From positions 6,097,501 to 6,161,500 of the forward strand of contig NZ_CP091716.1 of NCBI RefSeq assembly GCF_022009635.1: 64,000 nt of DNA, read 5' to 3'. Made by a program: the position numbers and the translations under genes. Positions 29,584 through 36,396 of this stretch are shown in pieces. Position 1 is the first letter of the stretch, and each line of letters begins with the position of its first letter. Source of the stretch: Variovorax paradoxus. Lineage in GTDB: Bacteria > Pseudomonadota > Gammaproteobacteria > Burkholderiales > Burkholderiaceae_C. The notes under the pieces are model-generated. The model made no database searches. It saw only the letters and a program-made list of their open reading frames with translations, and was not told the origin of the DNA.

Positions 29584-30819
29584 TCAACCCTTCACGCAAA
29601 CAACCTGCTTGAGCGTGTAAACCACCTCCACCAGGTCCTGCTGCGCCTCCATCACCGCGTCGATGTCCTTGTAGGCCATCGGAATCTCGTCGATCACGTC
29701 CGCGTCCTTTCGGCATTCCACGCCTTCGGTCGCGGCGATCTGATCGGCGATGGTGAAGAGCTTCTTCGCCTTGGTACGGCTCATCTTTCGACCGGCGCCG
29801 TGGCTGCAGCTCATGAAGCTCTCGGGGTTGCCCTTTCCGCGCACGATGAAGCTCTTGGCGCCCATGCTGCCGGGGATGATCCCCAGCTCGCCGGCCTTCG
29901 CGCTCACCGCGCCCTTGCGGGTCACGAGCACGTCTTCACCGAAGTGCGTCTCGCGGCTCACGTAGTTGTGGTGGCAGTTCACCGCTTCCACATGCGCCTC
30001 GAAGGGCTTGACGATGACCTTTCGCACGGCCGCGACCACGCGCTGCATCATCACTTCGCGGTTCGCTCGCGCGAACTTCTGGGCCCAACCCACCGCACGC
30101 ACGTAGTCACCGAAGTACCGGGCGCCTTCCTCGAAGTACGCCAGGTCCTGATCGGGCAGGTTGCGCTGGTGCAGTTCCGCGTCTTTCTTGGCGAGCTCGA
30201 TGAAGTGCGTGCCGACGGCGTTACCCACGCCGCGCGAACCCGAATGCAGCATGAACCACACGGAGCCCGCTTCGTCCAGGCACACCTCGATGAAGTGGTT
30301 GCCCGTACCCAGCGTTCCCAGGTGCTTGTGGTTGTTGGTGTTCTTCAGGCGCGGGTAGTCTTCGCAGATCGCGTCGAACTCGTCCTTCAGTGCAGCCCAC
30401 GCCACGTCGGTTTCGTTCGGCGGCGTTTCCCACGAACCCTTGTCGCGCCCCATGCGCTTGGGGTTCGATCCGTGCGGCACGGCCTTCTCGATCGCCGAGC
30501 GCAGCGGCCCCAGGTTGTCCGGCAGGTCGTTGGCATGCAGCGTGGTCTTGCACGCCATCATTCCGCAGCCGATGTCCACGCCCACCGCGGCCGGGATGAT
30601 GGCCTTGAAGGTCGGGATCACCGAACCCACGGTGGCGCCGATGCCGTAGTGCACGTCGGGCATGGCCGCGATGTGCTTGAACACGATGGGCAGGCGCGCC
30701 GCGTTCTCGAGCTGCTTCTGCGCCTCGGGCTCCACGGGCACGCCGCGGGTCCACATCTTCACGGGCACGCCGTTTTCGACTTCGTGCAGGTCGTAGTTCA
30801 TTTTTTCTTCTTTCATCAT
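29584..30819 (-). CDS. rtcB: RNA-splicing ligase RtcB
   Basis: A 411-residue RtcB, close to the usual length (E. coli 408). Metal-binding residues are in GVDIGCGMMA and GTGNHFIEV. The guanylated histidine is H340 in SCSHGAGRKMSR (equivalent to E. coli His337). It joins 2',3'-cyclic-phosphate or 3'-phosphate ends to 5'-OH ends using GTP and Mn2+, healing tRNA or rRNA broken by endonucleases. Start at 30,819 follows GAGGAG with seven-base spacing. It is the third gene from the operon promoter. Confidence 0.93.
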   Translation of the reverse strand: MMKEEKMNYDLHEVENGVPVKMWTRGVPVEPEAQKQLENAARLPIVFKHIAAMPDVHYGIGATVGSVIPTFKAIIPAAVGVDIGCGMMACKTTLHANDLPDNLGPLRSAIEKAVPHGSNPKRMGRDKGSWETPPNETDVAWAALKDEFDAICEDYPRLKNTNNHKHLGTLGTGNHFIEVCLDEAGSVWFMLHSGSRGVGNAVGTHFIELAKKDAELHQRNLPDQDLAYFEEGARYFGDYVRAVGWAQKFARANREVMMQRVVAAVRKVIVKPFEAHVEAVNCHHNYVSRETHFGEDVLVTRKGAVSAKAGELGIIPGSMGAKSFIVRGKGNPESFMSCSHGAGRKMSRTKAKKLFTIADQIAATEGVECRKDADVIDEIPMAYKDIDAVMEAQQDLVEVVYTLKQVVCVKG

Positions 30820-31385: not shown

Positions 31386-32537
31386 TCAAGGGGCGTTCGG
31401 CCGAAGCGTCACCAACCCATTGAGCACTTGGTCCAGACCGCCGATCACGGAGATCTTGTCGATCCGCTCGGCCACCCGTTCCAGCGTTTCGAGTTCCTTC
31501 ATCCGCAGCGCGACGGGGTTGCCCTCCATCACCTTCGCGGTGTTCAGCAGCGAGCGCGTGGCCGCGGTTTCCTCGCGGCGGCGGATCACGTTGGCCTGGG
31601 CCGACTTCTCGGCCTCCACCACCTGGGCGAGGATGGTCTTCATCTCGCCGGGCAGGATGATGTCCTTCACGCCCACGCTTTCCAGCGCGATGCCGCTGCC
31701 CTCGATCCGCTCGCGCACCTGCGCCAGCACCGTCTGGTCGATGGCCGCCTTGTTCTCCAGCAGCGCGTCGAGCGTCTGTTCGCCCACGGCGGCGCGCAGC
31801 CCGAACTGCAGCTCGCGGTACACATGGTCGGCCGGCTTCGGCATCTGCGCCATCGCCTGACGCACATCGGTGAAGCGCCACACCGCTGACATGTTCAGCC
31901 GCAGGCCCACCTTGTCGCGGGTCAGGATTTCCTGGCCGCTCACTTCGGCGATCTGCGAACGCATGTCCACGCAGGTCACGGCCACCTGCCGGTTGAAGCG
32001 CCAGAAACCATGGTTGCCCGGCTGCAGCAGCTCCTGCATCTGGCCCTGCAACGTCAGCACGCCGACGTGGAACTCGGGCACCTGCACCAGCAGCACGCCG
32101 TCGAGGCCGGCCACCGCACGCGGGCGCAGCGCCACGCTCTGCAGCTTCGACACCAGCTCGGCCGGCAGCCGCGCATCTTCGGCGACGTCGATCACGTCGA
32201 TGCGCTGTTCGCGCAGGCCACGCCAGTACAGCTTGCGGGTGGCGGGCGGCAGGATCTGCACCAGCACGCCGTCTTCCAGACGCAAGCCGACTTCCGTTTC
32301 GCCAAGGGACACCTGTACGAACTCGCGCTCGACAAGCTCCGGCTCCTGCGCCAGGAAATAGTCGACCAACTCATGCTCGAAGGCCGGTTCGGTCAACGCA
32401 AAGCGCTGTAGCTGGATCTTGTCGAAGCGCGAAAACACCCAGTGCTTTCCGGCGCCCAGTAGTTGCTCGAAATCGCCGTTGCGCAGCAGCAGCGCGCGTT
32501 CGTTCTTCTTGATCGTGATTCGGTTGAAGCCCAACAT
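31386..32537 (-). CDS. Slipin/SPFH (band-7) domain protein of the RNA-repair operon
   Basis: A 383-residue SPFH protein. The SPFH core spans residues about 120-290 and is followed by the helical segment MKTILAQVVEAEKSAQANVIRRREETAATRSL typical of stomatin/slipin oligomers. Unlike ordinary slipins it lacks the N-terminal hydrophobic hairpin, starting MLGFNRITIKKNERALLLRN, so it may be soluble or only peripherally membrane-bound. Slipin genes occur in a number of RtcR-controlled rtc operons, where their role is unknown. It is the first protein-coding gene after the structured leader. Confidence 0.82.
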   Translation of the reverse strand: MLGFNRITIKKNERALLLRNGDFEQLLGAGKHWVFSRFDKIQLQRFALTEPAFEHELVDYFLAQEPELVEREFVQVSLGETEVGLRLEDGVLVQILPPATRKLYWRGLREQRIDVIDVAEDARLPAELVSKLQSVALRPRAVAGLDGVLLVQVPEFHVGVLTLQGQMQELLQPGNHGFWRFNRQVAVTCVDMRSQIAEVSGQEILTRDKVGLRLNMSAVWRFTDVRQAMAQMPKPADHVYRELQFGLRAAVGEQTLDALLENKAAIDQTVLAQVRERIEGSGIALESVGVKDIILPGEMKTILAQVVEAEKSAQANVIRRREETAATRSLLNTAKVMEGNPVALRMKELETLERVAERIDKISVIGGLDQVLNGLVTLRPNAP

Positions 32538-33071
32538 TTTTCTCTCCCACTCGTTATTCGGTTCGGTTGTTCGTTTAGTCGTTCAGCCATTCAATCCAGG
32601 CCCTCGAAAGGGCAGGCGGCGGGCACTGCGGCAGTCAAGGCCTGACGCGCGGCGGTCGCTCGGCTCGGCAGGTGCCTCCCTCGTTGCTCGCGCAACGCCG
32701 TCACCTTCCTGGCCGTCGATGGCCGCACGCAGTTCCTTGCCACGCACACGGTGCGCAAGCCGCCTGCGCTTGGCACTTTGGCGCGCGCCGCAGGGCATTG
32801 GTTGTCTGCCCTGCGCCATCGCTCCGTTGTGCCGGGGCGGAGGGGCTTTCGCCCCCAACAGATGGCGGTGCAAGCACCGCCGGTTTTTTCGCGGGAATCG
32901 AACCCACAGCTCCATGTGGTCAACACGGCGCTCAACCATGAGCGGAACTGAATCAAGTTCAGTTGCCAGACAGCTCAACCGCGGCATACGGCAAACCCAA
33001 GGACAGACCTGGCTTGCCGCACCGGACCGCTTTCACGCGGCTCCTGCGAGTGGATGAACTGCATCCTGACG
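32538..33071 (-). ncRNA. Long structured 5' leader of the RNA-repair operon
   Basis: From the predicted sigma-54 start near 33,071 to the slipin ATG about 530 bases are transcribed without a credible gene. Several strong hairpins follow one another: AACTGAA-CTTGA-TTCAGTT (32,946-32,964), the tRNA-like arms (32,891-32,943), GGCGGTG-CTTG-CACCGCC (32,864-32,881), a GNRA hairpin GGGGC-GAAA-GCCCC near 32,850, and GCAGGGCA-N9-TGCCCTGC near 32,800. The density of perfect stems suggests a functional RNA, processed or regulatory. The transcript limits are inferred from the promoter. Confidence 0.55.
32891..32943 (-). ncRNA. tRNA-like element lacking an acceptor stem
   Basis: On the minus strand three arms follow with exact tRNA spacing. 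The D-like arm is GCTC-ATGGTT-GAGC. After one base comes the anticodon-like arm CCGTG-TTGACCA-CATGG. A four-base variable region leads to the T arm GTGGG-TTCGATT-CCCGC, with the universal TTCGA-type loop. The anticodon position reads GAC (Val), but base 37 is C. No acceptor stem can form: the 5' side is an independent hairpin and the 3' side is GAAAAAACC. It is not a normal tRNA gene; it looks like a tRNA mimic or a decayed tRNA. Bacterial Y RNAs in rtc loci also carry tRNA-like modules. Confidence 0.55.
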
Positions 33072-33080
33072 CGATATCCA

Positions 33081-33097
33081 TTGCAGCCGGCGTGCCA
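33081..33097 (-). promoter_or_regulatory. Sigma-54 promoter of the RNA-repair operon
   Basis: On the minus strand TGGCACGCCGGCTGCAA matches the -24/-12 consensus TGGCACG-N4-TTGCA, with GG and GC ten bases apart and one mismatch before the -12 TGC. It points toward slipin-rtcB-rtcA, and the divergent gene encodes RtcR, the sigma-54 activator of rtc operons. The predicted transcript start is near 33,071. Confidence 0.8.
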
Positions 33098-33231: not shown

Positions 33232-34854
33232 ATGAAGCCAATCGTCGTCATAGGCTTTCTAGGCACCCAGCTCGACGCCGGCCAGGGCGCGGGCCGCTGG
33301 AACAAATGGCGCCCCACCGTTTCGCTCGCCCAGCACGAAGACATGGTCGTCTCGCGCATGGAGCTGCTCTACACGCTCAAGCACAAGGCGCTGGCCGAGC
33401 TGGTGAAGGCAGACATCGCCACGGTATCGCCCGAAACCACCGTCAACCTCGTGCCGATGGAGCTCGCGGACCCGTGGGATTTCGGCGAGGTCTACAGCCG
33501 CCTGTACGACTGGGCGCGCGGCTACAGCTTCGACACCGAGCGCGAGCAGTACTGGACGCACATCACCACCGGCACGCACGTCGCGCAGATCTGCATGTTC
33601 CTGCTGTCGGAATCGCGCGTGGTGCCGGGCGTGCTCGCACAGACCTCGCCACCCCGACGGCAGCGCCAGGGCGAGGCCGGCAAGTGCACGCTGATCGACC
33701 TCGACCTCTCGCGCTACGACGTGATCGCGAGGCGCTTCGACGCGGAGCAGCGCGATGCGGTCGCGTTCCTGAAGAGCGGCATCGCCACGCGCAATGCGCG
33801 CTTCAATGCGTTGATCGACGAGATCGAGCGCGTGGCGGTGCGCTCGCGCGCGCCGATCCTGCTGGTGGGGCCTACCGGCGCGGGCAAGTCCTTCCTGGCG
33901 CGGCGCATGTTCGAGCTGAAGCAGTCGCGCCACCAGATGACCGGGCCGTTCGTGGAAGTGAACTGCGCCACGCTGCGCGGTGACGGCGCCGCGTCCACGC
34001 TGTTCGGCCACAGGAAGGGTTCTTTCACCGGAGCAGCCGCCGACCGCGCTGGCCTGCTGCGCACGGCACACCAGGGCGCGCTCTTCCTCGACGAGATCGG
34101 CGAACTCGGCCTCGACGAGCAGGCGATGCTGCTCAAGGCAATCGAGGAAAAACGCTTCTTTCCCGTTGGCGCCGACAAGGAAGTGGAGAGCGACTTCCAG
34201 CTCATCGCCGGAACCAATCGCGACTTGCGCAGCGACGTGGCCGACGGCCGGTTTCGCGAAGACCTGTTCGCGCGCATCAACCTCTGGACCTACGACCTGC
34301 CCGGCCTCGCGCAGCGGCCCGAGGACATCGAGCCCAACGTCGATCATCTGCTGGCCATCCACGCGGCGGAAAACCATCGCGTGGTGCGCTTCAACGCGGA
34401 AGCGCGTGCGGCCTACCTGCGCTTCGCGCAAAGTGGCGAAGCGGTCTGGAGCGGCAACTTCCGCGACCTGTCGGCCAGCGTGACGCGACTGGCCACGCTG
34501 GCCGATGGCGGGCGCATTCCAGTCGCGCTGGTCGAAGCGGAAATCGCGCGGCTGCGATGGTTGTGGAAGCATGCGGGCGCGGTGTCGCCTGCATCGGCTG
34601 GCGGCGGCGATGTCGATCTCGATGCGCTGCTTGGTGAAGAGCGGGTGCAGGCGCTCGACCTGTTCGACAGGCTGCAACTCGAAGCCGTGGTGCGCGTGTG
34701 CCGCCAGTCGCGCAGCCTTTCCGACGCGGGGCGACAGTTGTTTCAGGCCTCGCGCACGCAACGCAGCGTGGTGAACGATGCGGACCGGCTGCGCAAGTAC
34801 CTGGTCAAGCTGGGCCTCGATTGGGGGCAGGTTTCCGCCGGGCCAACGAGCTGA
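33232..34854 (+). CDS. rtcR: Sigma-54-dependent regulator of RNA repair
   Basis: A 540-residue bacterial enhancer-binding protein. Residues about 1-180 form the RtcR N-terminal CARF domain, which senses RNA ends. Residues about 185-420 form the AAA+ domain with Walker A GPTGAGKS (213-220) and the sigma-54 contact loop GSFTGA (263-268; the commoner form is GAFTGA). The C-terminus (SLSDAGRQLFQASRTQRSVVNDADRLRKYL) is a helix-turn-helix. It activates the divergent operon. In Salmonella, RtcR responds to tRNA fragments with cyclic-phosphate ends. Confidence 0.93.
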   Translation: MKPIVVIGFLGTQLDAGQGAGRWNKWRPTVSLAQHEDMVVSRMELLYTLKHKALAELVKADIATVSPETTVNLVPMELADPWDFGEVYSRLYDWARGYSFDTEREQYWTHITTGTHVAQICMFLLSESRVVPGVLAQTSPPRRQRQGEAGKCTLIDLDLSRYDVIARRFDAEQRDAVAFLKSGIATRNARFNALIDEIERVAVRSRAPILLVGPTGAGKSFLARRMFELKQSRHQMTGPFVEVNCATLRGDGAASTLFGHRKGSFTGAAADRAGLLRTAHQGALFLDEIGELGLDEQAMLLKAIEEKRFFPVGADKEVESDFQLIAGTNRDLRSDVADGRFREDLFARINLWTYDLPGLAQRPEDIEPNVDHLLAIHAAENHRVVRFNAEARAAYLRFAQSGEAVWSGNFRDLSASVTRLATLADGGRIPVALVEAEIARLRWLWKHAGAVSPASAGGGDVDLDALLGEERVQALDLFDRLQLEAVVRVCRQSRSLSDAGRQLFQASRTQRSVVNDADRLRKYLVKLGLDWGQVSAGPTS

Positions 34855-34889
34855 CCGAACGGCACCATCGATGGGCTATCCTCCGCCCG

Positions 34890-35417
34890 ATGGCCATCTC
34901 CGCATTCGTCGTGAAGGTTCCCGCCGCCGAGCCCATGGCCGGCGATCTGCGCCGCCGCTACGACGCAACCGTGGCACTCGGGGTACCGGCGCACATCACG
35001 GTGCTCGTGCCCTTCATGGACCCCGCGCTGATCACTGCAGACGTGCTGGATCGGGCACGGCGTGCGCTGACGCGGACACCTTCGTTCGCTTTCTCGCTGA
35101 ACAAGGTCGGTCGGTTTCCAGAGACCGCCTATCTGGCGCCCGAGCCAGCAGCACCGTTCATCGAAATGACATTGGCGCTCGCGAAGACGTTCCCCGACTT
35201 CCCTCCCTATGGCGGCGAACACGAAGGCGTCATTCCGCATCTGTCGGTGGCGCATGGCCATGCGCGCGACGCGCAGGAGGCAGCCGACGAACTGAATGTC
35301 CGCCTTCTCGCATCAGGTGCCGTACACGCGCATTGCACCGAAGTCACGCTGATCGAGAACTCGTCCGGGCGCTGGCGCGACCTGCATGTCTTCGCGCTAC
35401 CCGAAGCGACTTCCTGA
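34890..35417 (+). CDS. 2H phosphoesterase (2'-5' RNA ligase family)
   Basis: A 175-residue protein with the two H-X-T/S motifs of the 2H superfamily: H35-I-T and H117-L-S. Such enzymes open 2',3'-cyclic phosphates or act on 2'-5' linkages in RNA. It starts 35 bases after rtcR in the same direction. The likely role is processing of RNA termini in the repair pathway, either as counterpart to RtcA cyclisation or as a signal-decay enzyme for the RtcR ligand. Substrate not proven. Confidence 0.82.
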   Translation: MAISAFVVKVPAAEPMAGDLRRRYDATVALGVPAHITVLVPFMDPALITADVLDRARRALTRTPSFAFSLNKVGRFPETAYLAPEPAAPFIEMTLALAKTFPDFPPYGGEHEGVIPHLSVAHGHARDAQEAADELNVRLLASGAVHAHCTEVTLIENSSGRWRDLHVFALPEATS

Positions 35418-35427
35418 GTATTCGTTC

Positions 35428-35784
35428 ATGCCCGAAGAACCATCGACGTCGCCCGTTCGCAACGTGCTCTTCATCTGCAGCCGCAACCAGTGGCGCAGCC
35501 CCACAGCGGAGCAGATCTGGCGGCGGCACCCGCTGATCCGCGCACGCTCCGCCGGCACCAGCCCGAATGCGCGGCACACGGTGTCCGTGGACGACATCGA
35601 ATGGGCCGACGTCATCCTCGCGATGGAAGAAAAGCACAAGTCGCGGCTGGTGGCCGAGTTCAAGCGAATGCTGGAAGGCAAGCCGATCCACGTGCTCGAC
35701 ATTCCGGACGAGTACAAATACATGGACCCTGAGCTCGTCGAGGAGCTCGAGCGGTCGGTTGCGTCGATTCCTCAAATCGACTGA
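35428..35784 (+). CDS. Protein-tyrosine-phosphatase-like protein
   Basis: A 118-residue protein of the low-molecular-weight phosphatase fold, with the C-X5-R loop C17-SRNQW-R23-S and the general-acid segment LDIPDEY. It is shorter than typical LMW phosphatases (about 150 residues) and fits a small group annotated as predicted tyrosine phosphatases. It starts ten bases after the 2H gene, so it is in the rtcR operon. Action on a nucleotide or RNA phosphate rather than phosphotyrosine is possible but speculative. Confidence 0.75.
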   Translation: MPEEPSTSPVRNVLFICSRNQWRSPTAEQIWRRHPLIRARSAGTSPNARHTVSVDDIEWADVILAMEEKHKSRLVAEFKRMLEGKPIHVLDIPDEYKYMDPELVEELERSVASIPQID

Positions 35785-35820
35785 CGTTCGCAGCAACGAG
35801 AACCGCACCTGAAGAAGCAC

Positions 35821-36396
35821 ATGCCAGAAATCTACATAAGCACAGACGTCGAATCCGACGGCCCCATCCCCGGCCCGCATTCGATGCTCAGCTTCGGCTC
35901 GGCCGCCTACACGGCCGACAAGCAACTGCTCTCCACGTTCACCGCCAACCTGCACACCCTGCCCGGCGCCGAGGCCGACCCGAAGACCGCCGCCTGGTGG
36001 AAGACCCAGCCCGAGGCCTGGGCCGCCTGCCGCAGCGACCTGCAGGATCCCGCCCACGCGATGAAGAACTACGTGAGCTGGCTCAAGGGGCTGCCCGCGC
36101 GGCCCGTGTTCGTCGCGTACCCCGCGGGCTTCGACTTCCTGTTCGTCTACTGGTACCTGATGCGCTTCGCGGGCGAGAGCCCGTTCAGCCACTCGGCGCT
36201 CGACGTGAAGTCGTTCGCGATGGCGATGCTCAAGCTCGACTATCGCGACAGCACCAAGCGCGCGATGCCGCGCCGCTGGTTCGACCCCGGGCTGCCGCAC
36301 ACGCACGTCGCACTCGACGACGCCATCGAGCAAGGCGCCCTCTTCTGCAACATGCTCGCGGAGAACCGCGCGGCCGCCAAGGGCCCGGCGCCATGA
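35821..36396 (+). CDS. DEDDh-type 3'-5' exonuclease
   Basis: A 191-residue protein with the DEDDh signature: D9 and E11 in STDVESDG, an Asp in [13 protein letters not shown], and H-X4-D in [13 protein letters not shown]. This is the domain of oligoribonuclease, RNase T and DnaQ epsilon. Its position behind rtcR, the 2H esterase and the phosphatase suggests 3' trimming of RNA. Its stop overlaps the next start (ATGA), so the hydrolase lipoprotein downstream may be co-transcribed. Confidence 0.8.

What the first reader, a model, noticed from the sequence alone, without database searches (positions are those of the whole stretch)
32891..32943. tRNA mimic without an acceptor stem in the leader of the RNA-repair operon
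D-like, anticodon-like and T arms occur with correct inter-arm spacing (one base, then four) and a canonical T loop. The acceptor stem is replaced by an independent hairpin on the 5' side and an A-rich tract on the 3' side. It lies in the predicted transcript of an operon that repairs broken tRNA and whose activator senses tRNA fragments. It could be a decoy substrate, a processing signal for the RNase Z-like enzyme in the same operon, or a Y-RNA-like scaffold; Y RNAs of rtc/rsr loci mimic tRNA, but no Rsr (TROVE) gene is in this window.
Basis: partly seen in the sequence, partly recalled or inferred. Interest (0 to 1): 0.8.

Follow-up and report, generated by a model that had tools for sequence, protein, structure and literature searches.

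The report
tRNA-mimic RNA beside slipin gene
The stretch is a real, conserved RNA element that imitates the folded corner of a transfer RNA; it sits just before a slipin (SPFH) gene in an RNA-repair operon, and this bacterium's genus has a cut-down version of an RNA that many related bacteria keep next to the same gene.

Summary
Window 32943-32891, minus strand, has D-, anticodon- and T-arms with the stated spacing. A model built without the window's genus finds it as the only hit in 64 kb (E 5.7e-8).

It follows an exact sigma-54 site; its T arm starts 371 nt before slipin. 82 of 87 distinct slipin-selected loci carry it. All 7 significantly covarying column pairs lie in the tRNA-like structure.

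Relatives have a 2-7 bp acceptor. The window's genus has at most 3 bp (5 possible in one species) plus an independent hairpin. D-loop GG and T-loop are constant; the anticodon loop is not (29 of 71 not 7 nt): an elbow mimic.

Among 36 RtcR loci not selected for slipin, the element scores >=40 bits in 12 of 13 with slipin and 2 of 23 without (one an ordinary tRNA); weaker hits occur in 8 more slipin-less loci. In four loci it stays with slipin, away from rtcR.

Best reading: a slipin-cognate RNA working like a Y RNA. A slipin-linked "tRNA-like molecule" was, as I recall, reported in 2016. Function is inferred; no expression data.

The parts
33082..33097 (-). sigma-54 (-24/-12) promoter site TGGCACG-CCGG-CTGCA
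   Evidence: exact match, the only site found in the rtcR-slipin gap with up to 1 substitution; a looser pattern with up to 1 substitution within 900 nt upstream of slipin in 70 of 92 sequences, 5 of them duplicates, chance rate not computed
33027..33040 (-). P1 hairpin CCGC-GTGAAA-GCGG
   Evidence: window counterpart of the variable P1 helix; read from the sequence and alignment A3
32982..33025 (-). P2 helix of the RNA: CCGGTGC...GTATGCCG
   Evidence: RNAalifold consensus of P1+P2, 21 pairs, 17 with both-side changes; tree-based null: 3 column pairs E<0.05, 2 of them in the structure, 1 not
32946..32964 (-). 5' hairpin AACTGAA-CTTGA-TTCAGTT that stands where the acceptor stem would be
   Evidence: compensatory change to GGA/TCC in L016 and L017; L004 has CTTGG-TTTCGGT-CCAAG
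32891..32943 (-). tRNA-like element B: D arm 32943-32930, anticodon-like arm 32928-32912, T arm 32907-32891
32884..32890 (-). A-rich tract GAAAAAA; its GAA could pair with TTC at 32947-32945 as a 3-bp vestigial acceptor
32864..32881 (-). hairpin after the element, GGCGGTGCTTGCACCGCC
31386..32537 (-). slipin (SPFH/Band 7) gene, partner of the element; no strongly hydrophobic segment (max 19-residue hydropathy 1.37)
   Evidence: PF01145 103.6 bits
30836..31366 (-). 176-aa protein of unknown family
   Evidence: no Pfam or NCBIfam match
29584..30819 (-). RtcB RNA ligase
   Evidence: PF01139 431.5 bits
28592..29233 (-). treble-clef zinc protein
   Evidence: PF13451
27627..28568 (-). RNase Z-like metallo-beta-lactamase
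   Evidence: TIGR02651 230.6 bits, below its cut-off of 292.95
33232..34854 (+). RtcR, divergent activator
   Evidence: NF038308 822.4 bits, cut-off 650

Best explanation
It is the constant module (B) of a structured RNA transcribed from the RtcR/sigma-54 promoter ahead of slipin. The full form in relatives is a P1/P2 hairpin domain, then an acceptor-plus-T-arm module (A), then module B. B rebuilds the tRNA elbow: D-loop GG against a TTCRANT T-loop. Shown: structure, covariation, position, and linkage to slipin. Inferred: the RNA is made, is released or held, and is bound by the slipin ring, so that slipin plus RNA acts as a scaffold like Ro/Rsr plus Y RNA, recruiting elbow-binding tRNA enzymes or holding broken tRNAs near RtcB. 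In the window's genus module A seems to have collapsed to one hairpin set against B, which lost most of its acceptor.
For: B in 82 of 87 distinct loci selected for slipin. Covariation: 7 of 7 significant pairs in the structure; 248 both-side-change cells against 84.3 in shuffles; hits in 13 loci not used for the model 91.1% paired, score 0.571 vs 0.157. Clade-excluded detection of the window. Slipin linkage: 12 of 13 vs 2 of 23 RtcR loci at >=40 bits, Fisher p 9e-7; the elements of all 13 slipin loci (the thirteenth, L105, at 19.3 bits) lie 195-331 nt upstream of slipin on its strand. In L095, L103, L105 and L129 the element lies between rtcB and slipin. TROVE beside RtcR at 5 loci, all slipin-less; none in the window's genome.
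Against: No expression or binding data. No terminator on the minus strand separates the RNA from the slipin mRNA by a simple scan, so a cis role stays open. The 40-bit line was drawn after seeing the scores: at E <= 0.1 the model hits 13 of 13 slipin loci but also 10 of 23 slipin-less ones, mostly at 14-35 bits. Six of those ten have TROVE or YrlA and one is a tRNA, but L102, L112 and L123 (up to 34.5 bits) have tRNA-like hits with neither slipin nor a TROVE match. L027, L062, L063 and L086 have slipin but no detectable B, and L075 only a T arm. P1/P2 was found in 8 of the 13 slipin RtcR loci. Two of five measures do not clearly beat the shuffles (pairs with both-side change, 84/500; pair types, 75/500). 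RNA-binding by this slipin is not shown.
Confidence: 0.55

Rival explanations
1. Cis-acting leader: the tRNA mimic controls slipin translation, for example slipin or a tRNA-binding enzyme binds its own leader, as threonyl-tRNA synthetase does on the thrS operator (recalled).
For: On the slipin strand, 195-331 nt before the slipin start at 13 RtcR loci, including loci where slipin is not next to rtcR. No minus-strand terminator found between element and gene by a simple scan.
Against: In many relatives a second module A precedes it, with its own acceptor stem and NCCA in 31 of 74 parsed rows (six false parses included), more than an operator would need. The distance to the start codon is long.
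Confidence: 0.22
2. Processing signal: RNase P or RNase Z recognises the tRNA-like fold and cuts the leader, releasing the upstream RNA or setting the mRNA 5' end (recalled analogy: mascRNA).
For: Elbow and T arm are features these enzymes recognise (established knowledge; RNase P in PMC4810234 abstract); module A has acceptor plus T arm; the window operon has an RNase Z-like gene.
Against: RNase Z-like gene in only 6 of 59 loci of 11 kb or more. The window's B lacks a proper acceptor end, and B-type acceptors are 2-7 bp.
Confidence: 0.13
3. Decoy: it soaks up anticodon nucleases or RtcR-activating enzymes.
For: RtcR senses tRNA fragments (PMC7790460, summary and passages seen); that paper offers competitive inhibition of the nuclease as one possibility for YrlA. 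Of the 42 seven-nt loops 33 keep U33 as tRNAs do.
Against: Anticodon loop not conserved: 29 of 71 are not 7 nt, 9 are GCAA, GAAA or TTCG tetraloops, and 20 different triplets occur among the 42 seven-nt loops.
Confidence: 0.07
4. Remnant of a tRNA gene or an integration scar.
For: The element resembles real tRNAs: the same model has higher-scoring matches up to 73.9 bits in the genome, presumably its tRNA genes.
Against: Covariation, and the same place and strand in Beta- and Gammaproteobacteria and one Rhodospirillales MAG by record title.
Confidence: 0.02

Closest known systems
Slipin/SPFH-linked 'novel tRNA-like molecule' of RNA-repair systems (Burroughs and Aravind 2016, doi 10.1093/nar/gkw722; abstract recalled, paper not held)
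   Same: tRNA-like RNA tied to an SPFH/Band-7 gene in RtcB systems
   Different: The window's form has lost most of the acceptor stem. Whether the two-module plus P1/P2 architecture was described there could not be checked.
Bacterial Y RNA YrlA (Rfam RF02553)
   Same: tRNA mimic in an RtcR/RtcB operon, with D- and T-arms
   Different: No Rfam match in the window, no TROVE match in the genome, an anticodon-like arm is present, and the neighbour is slipin
tmRNA tRNA-like domain (RF00023)
   Same: T arm with reduced D part resembles module A of relatives
   Different: No RF00023 match at gathering in the window; an ordinary tmRNA is elsewhere in the genome
thrS translational operator (recalled; named in a PMC8394870 passage)
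   Same: tRNA-like fold in an mRNA leader
   Different: Partner gene, multi-module architecture, non-conserved anticodon loop

Membership tests
Slipin-linked tRNA-like RNA (2016, recalled) | encoded beside an SPFH gene of an RtcB system | tested here: met
Slipin-linked tRNA-like RNA (2016, recalled) | tRNA-like secondary structure supported by covariation | tested here: met
Slipin-linked tRNA-like RNA (2016, recalled) | match to the published description | not testable with these tools
   paper not held
Bacterial Y RNA (YrlA) | Rfam RF02553 match | tested here: not met
   positive controls L098, L111, L115
Bacterial Y RNA (YrlA) | Rsr (TROVE) partner gene | tested here: not met
   no PF05731 match in the window's genome
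Bacterial Y RNA (YrlA) | D- and T-arm tRNA mimicry | tested here: met
Canonical tRNA | 7-bp acceptor stem | tested here: not met
   at most 3 bp in the window
Canonical tRNA | called by ARAGORN / Rfam RF00005 | tested here: not met
   for the window; several relatives are called as tRNAs with varied anticodons or match RF00005
Canonical tRNA | D-loop GG and TTCRANT T-loop | tested here: met
   window has both; 71 of 71 rows, but T-loop and D stem were selection criteria; also in the model hits printed
RNase Z processing signal | co-occurrence with the RNase Z-like gene | tested here: not met
   6 of 59 loci of 11 kb or more
Cis-regulatory leader | alters slipin expression in cis | not testable with these tools
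   needs reporter fusions

The most novel reading that the evidence does not exclude
RNA-repair operons carry a set of dedicated tRNA mimics, each travelling with a different repair protein: tandem elbow mimics with slipin, Y RNAs with Rsr, and a separate 210-255 nt tmRNA-like RNA (7-bp acceptor, T arm, ACCA) that in relatives often lies just upstream of rtcB. Slipin rings plus their RNA would then be a second, Ro-independent invention of a Y-RNA-type particle that sorts or holds broken tRNAs.
Probability: 0.35. Interest if true: 0.8.

Novelty: new variant of a known kind. Interest (0 to 1): 0.55.

Why it matters
Why RNA-repair operons carry slipin genes is, as far as I know, unexplained. A conserved, covarying tRNA-elbow mimic tied to slipin, apart from the Rsr/Y-RNA pairing, predicts that slipin is an RNA-dependent scaffold and names one RNA to look for in a pull-down. 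No Rfam family describes it: the window has no gathering-level match and relatives match only the generic tRNA family, and ARAGORN calls some of them assorted tRNAs. The second RNA seen near rtcB in relatives suggests that tRNA mimicry may be a general feature of these operons.

Tried and rejected
Folding energy alone: z -1.5, not informative. Rfam, ARAGORN and permissive Rfam on the window: nothing reliable. P1/P2 model over 369 class-wide genomes: 1 of 369, the window's own (12 candidates scored per genome); four slipin loci of that draw (L095, L099, L103, L105) also lack it in the direct search, so I used RtcR loci instead. P1/P2 covariation is weaker on the MAFFT alignment (3 significant pairs, 2 in the structure). 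Element A parsing: 74 of 79 rows parsed by a best-helix search, which favours pairing; L013-L018 (six rows) are false parses inside P2, the L085 'D arm' is doubtful, and A's covariation was not tested. The RNase Z link was rejected. Papers: searches of the held library showed, in the listings and passages I saw, no report of a slipin-linked tRNA-like RNA; the 2016 paper is not held, so claims of novelty are limited by that.

Rows dropped or not used: one search kept the best 80 of at least 443 slipin relatives. Before A2 (73 rows): from 84 rows with B, 5 duplicate loci, 4 identical sequences, and L036 and L052 (misparsed). (71 rows) also leaves out L034 and L037 (misparsed). A3: 75 of 79 parsed references (L005, L026, L036, L050 left out); 7 further loci were not parsed for P2. 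A6: 52 of the 67 rows of A2 outside the window's genus. RtcR: the fragment in G187 and the matches below cut-off in G150 and G270 were not fetched; L130-L132 (weak RtcR) were left out of the 36.

Full report
WHAT IS THERE. The element is on the minus strand, in the gap between rtcR (33232, plus strand) and slipin (start 32537, minus strand). An exact sigma-54 site TGGCACGCCGGCTGCA lies at 33097-33082 on the same strand, so the element is inside the predicted operon transcript; no transcript was observed. The operon runs slipin (PF01145), an unknown 176-aa protein, RtcB (PF01139), a zinc protein and an RNase Z-like protein. RtcR matches NF038308 at 822 bits. The window's genus is Variovorax: the same-genus genome G122 has a contig of the same length (396082) as Variovorax sp. 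Root473.

IS IT MORE THAN CHANCE. On its own the sequence does not convince general tools: ARAGORN finds no tRNA, Rfam nothing at gathering, the best permissive tRNA-clan score is 19.6 bits, and the fold z-score is -1.5. Comparison settles it. A slipin profile gave the best 80 of at least 443 relatives in named genomes, and 11 loci came from 150 genomes of the family, one of them the window itself. A D-arm/T-arm pattern search found the element in 79 of these, and the clade-excluded model added L004, L010 and L058, making 82 of 87. L027, L062, L063 and L086 have none, and L075 only a T arm.

COVARIATION. On 73 distinct sequences aligned by MAFFT (A2), 90.4% of cells pair against 73.7% in shuffles, and both-side changes number 248 against 84.3; two of the five measures do not clearly exceed the shuffles (84 and 75 of 500). 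Sliding the partner by one to three columns gives 34.6-44.4% paired. With a tree-based null in the manner of R-scape (my own script, 60 replicates, 2415 column pairs) 7 pairs reach E<0.05 and all 7 are among the 20 pairs of the structure, in the acceptor, anticodon-like and T helices. The D stem is invariant in A2, partly because the search pattern favoured GCTC/GAGC; L004 has the compensated GTTC/GAAC. In 19 model hits from 13 loci that were not used for the model, 91.1% pair and the covariation score is 0.571 against 0.157; this alignment was fitted to the structure. A model from 52 sequences without the window's genus (93.0% paired) finds the window element as the only hit in 64 kb, E 5.7e-8. 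In the whole genome it gives E 7.2e-6, amid higher-scoring matches of up to 73.9 bits that I take to be the true tRNAs.

WHAT IT MIMICS. Among 71 rows, D-loop GG occurs in 71, the D stem is GCTC/GAGC and the T loop is TTCRANT in all, with the selection caveat above. The anticodon-like loop is 7 nt in only 42 of 71; nine are GCAA, GAAA or TTCG tetraloops. The 42 seven-nt loops hold 20 different triplets, though 33 of them keep U33. The acceptor, by a best-helix search that allows short linkers, is 2-7 bp over these rows. The constant part is therefore the elbow, the D-loop/T-loop corner that many proteins and several RNAs recognise (PMC4810234, abstract and outline seen). In the window's genus the acceptor is at most 3 bp, except L019 where 5 bp are possible; six rows from other genera also have only 3 bp (L006, L021, L025, L029, L033, L083). 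What sets the genus apart is the abutting hairpin, which shows a compensatory change (GAA/TTC to GGA/TCC). In L004 that hairpin has a TTTCGGT loop, which suggests that it descends from the T arm of module A; this is an inference.

THE WHOLE RNA. In many relatives three parts lie between the promoter and slipin: a P1/P2 hairpin domain with a conserved CCGGTGC...GYATGCCG helix (21 consensus pairs, 17 with both-side changes); module A, an acceptor stem plus T arm, usually without D arm and with NCCA in 31 of 74 parsed rows (six of the 74 are false parses, and pairing was favoured by the search); and module B. The window keeps P1/P2 (33040-32982) and B but not A.

LINKED TO SLIPIN. RtcR loci were taken without regard to slipin from 369 class-wide genomes and 250 order-wide genomes: 39 regions fetched, of which 36 hold an RtcR recognisable by tblastn. 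Slipin is within the fetched stretch in 13. At >=40 bits, a line drawn after seeing the scores, the element occurs in 12 of 13 slipin loci and 2 of 23 others (Fisher p 9e-7). The two exceptions are an ordinary tRNA gene (L104, Rfam 66 bits) and a YrlA locus (L111). The thirteenth, L105, scores 19.3 bits in the right place. At the looser E <= 0.1 the count is 13 of 13 against 10 of 23: besides L104 and L111 these are L094, L098, L115, L116 and L127, which have TROVE, and L102, L112 and L123, which have neither slipin nor a TROVE match and remain unexplained. The elements of the 13 slipin loci lie 195-331 nt upstream of slipin on its strand. In L095, L103, L105 and L129 the order is rtcR, rtcB, element, slipin, so the element follows slipin and not the rtcR promoter. 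TROVE proteins lie beside RtcR at five loci (L094, L098, L115, L116, L127), all slipin-less, and Rfam YrlA at L098, L111 and L115 (one search examined 12 of the 39 regions). The window's genome has no TROVE match.

MECHANISM. The two proteins, Rsr and slipin, each with a tRNA-mimic RNA, look like alternatives at RtcR loci. YrlA ties Rsr to PNPase through its tRNA-like domain and is modified by TruB and DusA (review PMC8394870, passages seen). By analogy I propose that slipin, which here has no strongly hydrophobic segment, and its RNA form a scaffold that recruits elbow-binding enzymes or holds broken tRNAs for RtcB. This part is inference. A cis-acting leader is the main rival, since the RNA precedes slipin and no minus-strand terminator was found between them. 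A decoy for anticodon nucleases is unlikely because the anticodon loop is not conserved. A dedicated RNase Z signal is unlikely because that gene is in only 6 of 59 long loci.

KNOWN OR NEW. I recall that the abstract of Burroughs and Aravind 2016 names SPFH/Band-7 modules with a 'novel tRNA-like molecule'. The paper is not held; only its entry in the reference list of PMC7790460 was seen. The 2026 study of Pseudomonas aeruginosa SPFH proteins (PMC13086221, one passage seen) notes one in the rtc locus; a search of its text for 'tRNA' found nothing. I therefore rate this a new variant of a known kind. What I can add here is the measured covariation, the elbow-not-anticodon conservation, the reduced variant of the window's genus, the comparison with slipin-less RtcR loci, and a second mimic near rtcB in relatives.

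Noticed in passing
L013:7184-7416 (+), L014, L015, L017, L021:7206-7440, L024, L060:2275-2486, L084:2772-2981, L098:1818-2028 (-), L121:736-963, L133:1501-1733 (-), L134:1489-1743: A different structured RNA of 210-255 nt at 12 loci: 7-bp acceptor of varying sequence, T arm and ACCA end, like a tmRNA without tag domain; Rfam tmRNA only 26.5 bits in L013 (gathering 47). It ends within 50 nt of rtcB in 6 of the 12 (L014, L015, L017, L060, L098, L134), lies farther off in 5 (L013, L021, L024, L121, L133), and L084 shows no rtcB. Starts were chosen so that the acceptor pairs fully, but a consensus fold finds the same closing helix. All 5 genomes checked have an ordinary tmRNA elsewhere. Not in the window; 3 of 150 family genomes have a match, one of only 30 bases.
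   Followed up: partly
L020, L046, L080, L091 and other loci without rtcR: Arrays of true tRNA genes precede element B and slipin; rtcB is in the same stretch in L020, L046 and L080 but not in L091; in L020 and L046 an HNH endonuclease gene lies between array and RNA. It parallels genes derepressed in the Anabaena trcR mutant, among them rtcB, a slipin and an HNH nuclease, with the tRNA operon also under TrcR (PMC10272220 passages).
   Followed up: partly
L098, L111, L102, L112, L123: Slipin-less RtcR loci with several T-arm-like hits between rtcR and rtcB (11 in L111, 8 in L098 at E <= 0.1), of which Rfam calls one YrlA each in L098 and L111 and none in L102, L112, L123; they may be divergent Y RNAs.
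   Followed up: no
window 32863-32882 (+): Read on the plus strand, the hairpin after the element plus the A-tract looks like an intrinsic terminator (hairpin then GTTTTTTC), though shuffles give as many.
   Followed up: no
window 34698-36396 (+): Downstream of rtcR: a 2'-5' RNA ligase-like, an LMW-phosphatase-like and an exoribonuclease-like gene, each found in only 5-6 of 59 long loci, nearly all of the window's genus (flanks held are limited).
   Followed up: no
relatives, e.g. L029:5623-5695, L047:5645-5718: ARAGORN calls element B a tRNA with assorted anticodons (Cys, Arg, Ile, Met, even a stop), so public annotations may hold false tRNA genes here.
   Followed up: no
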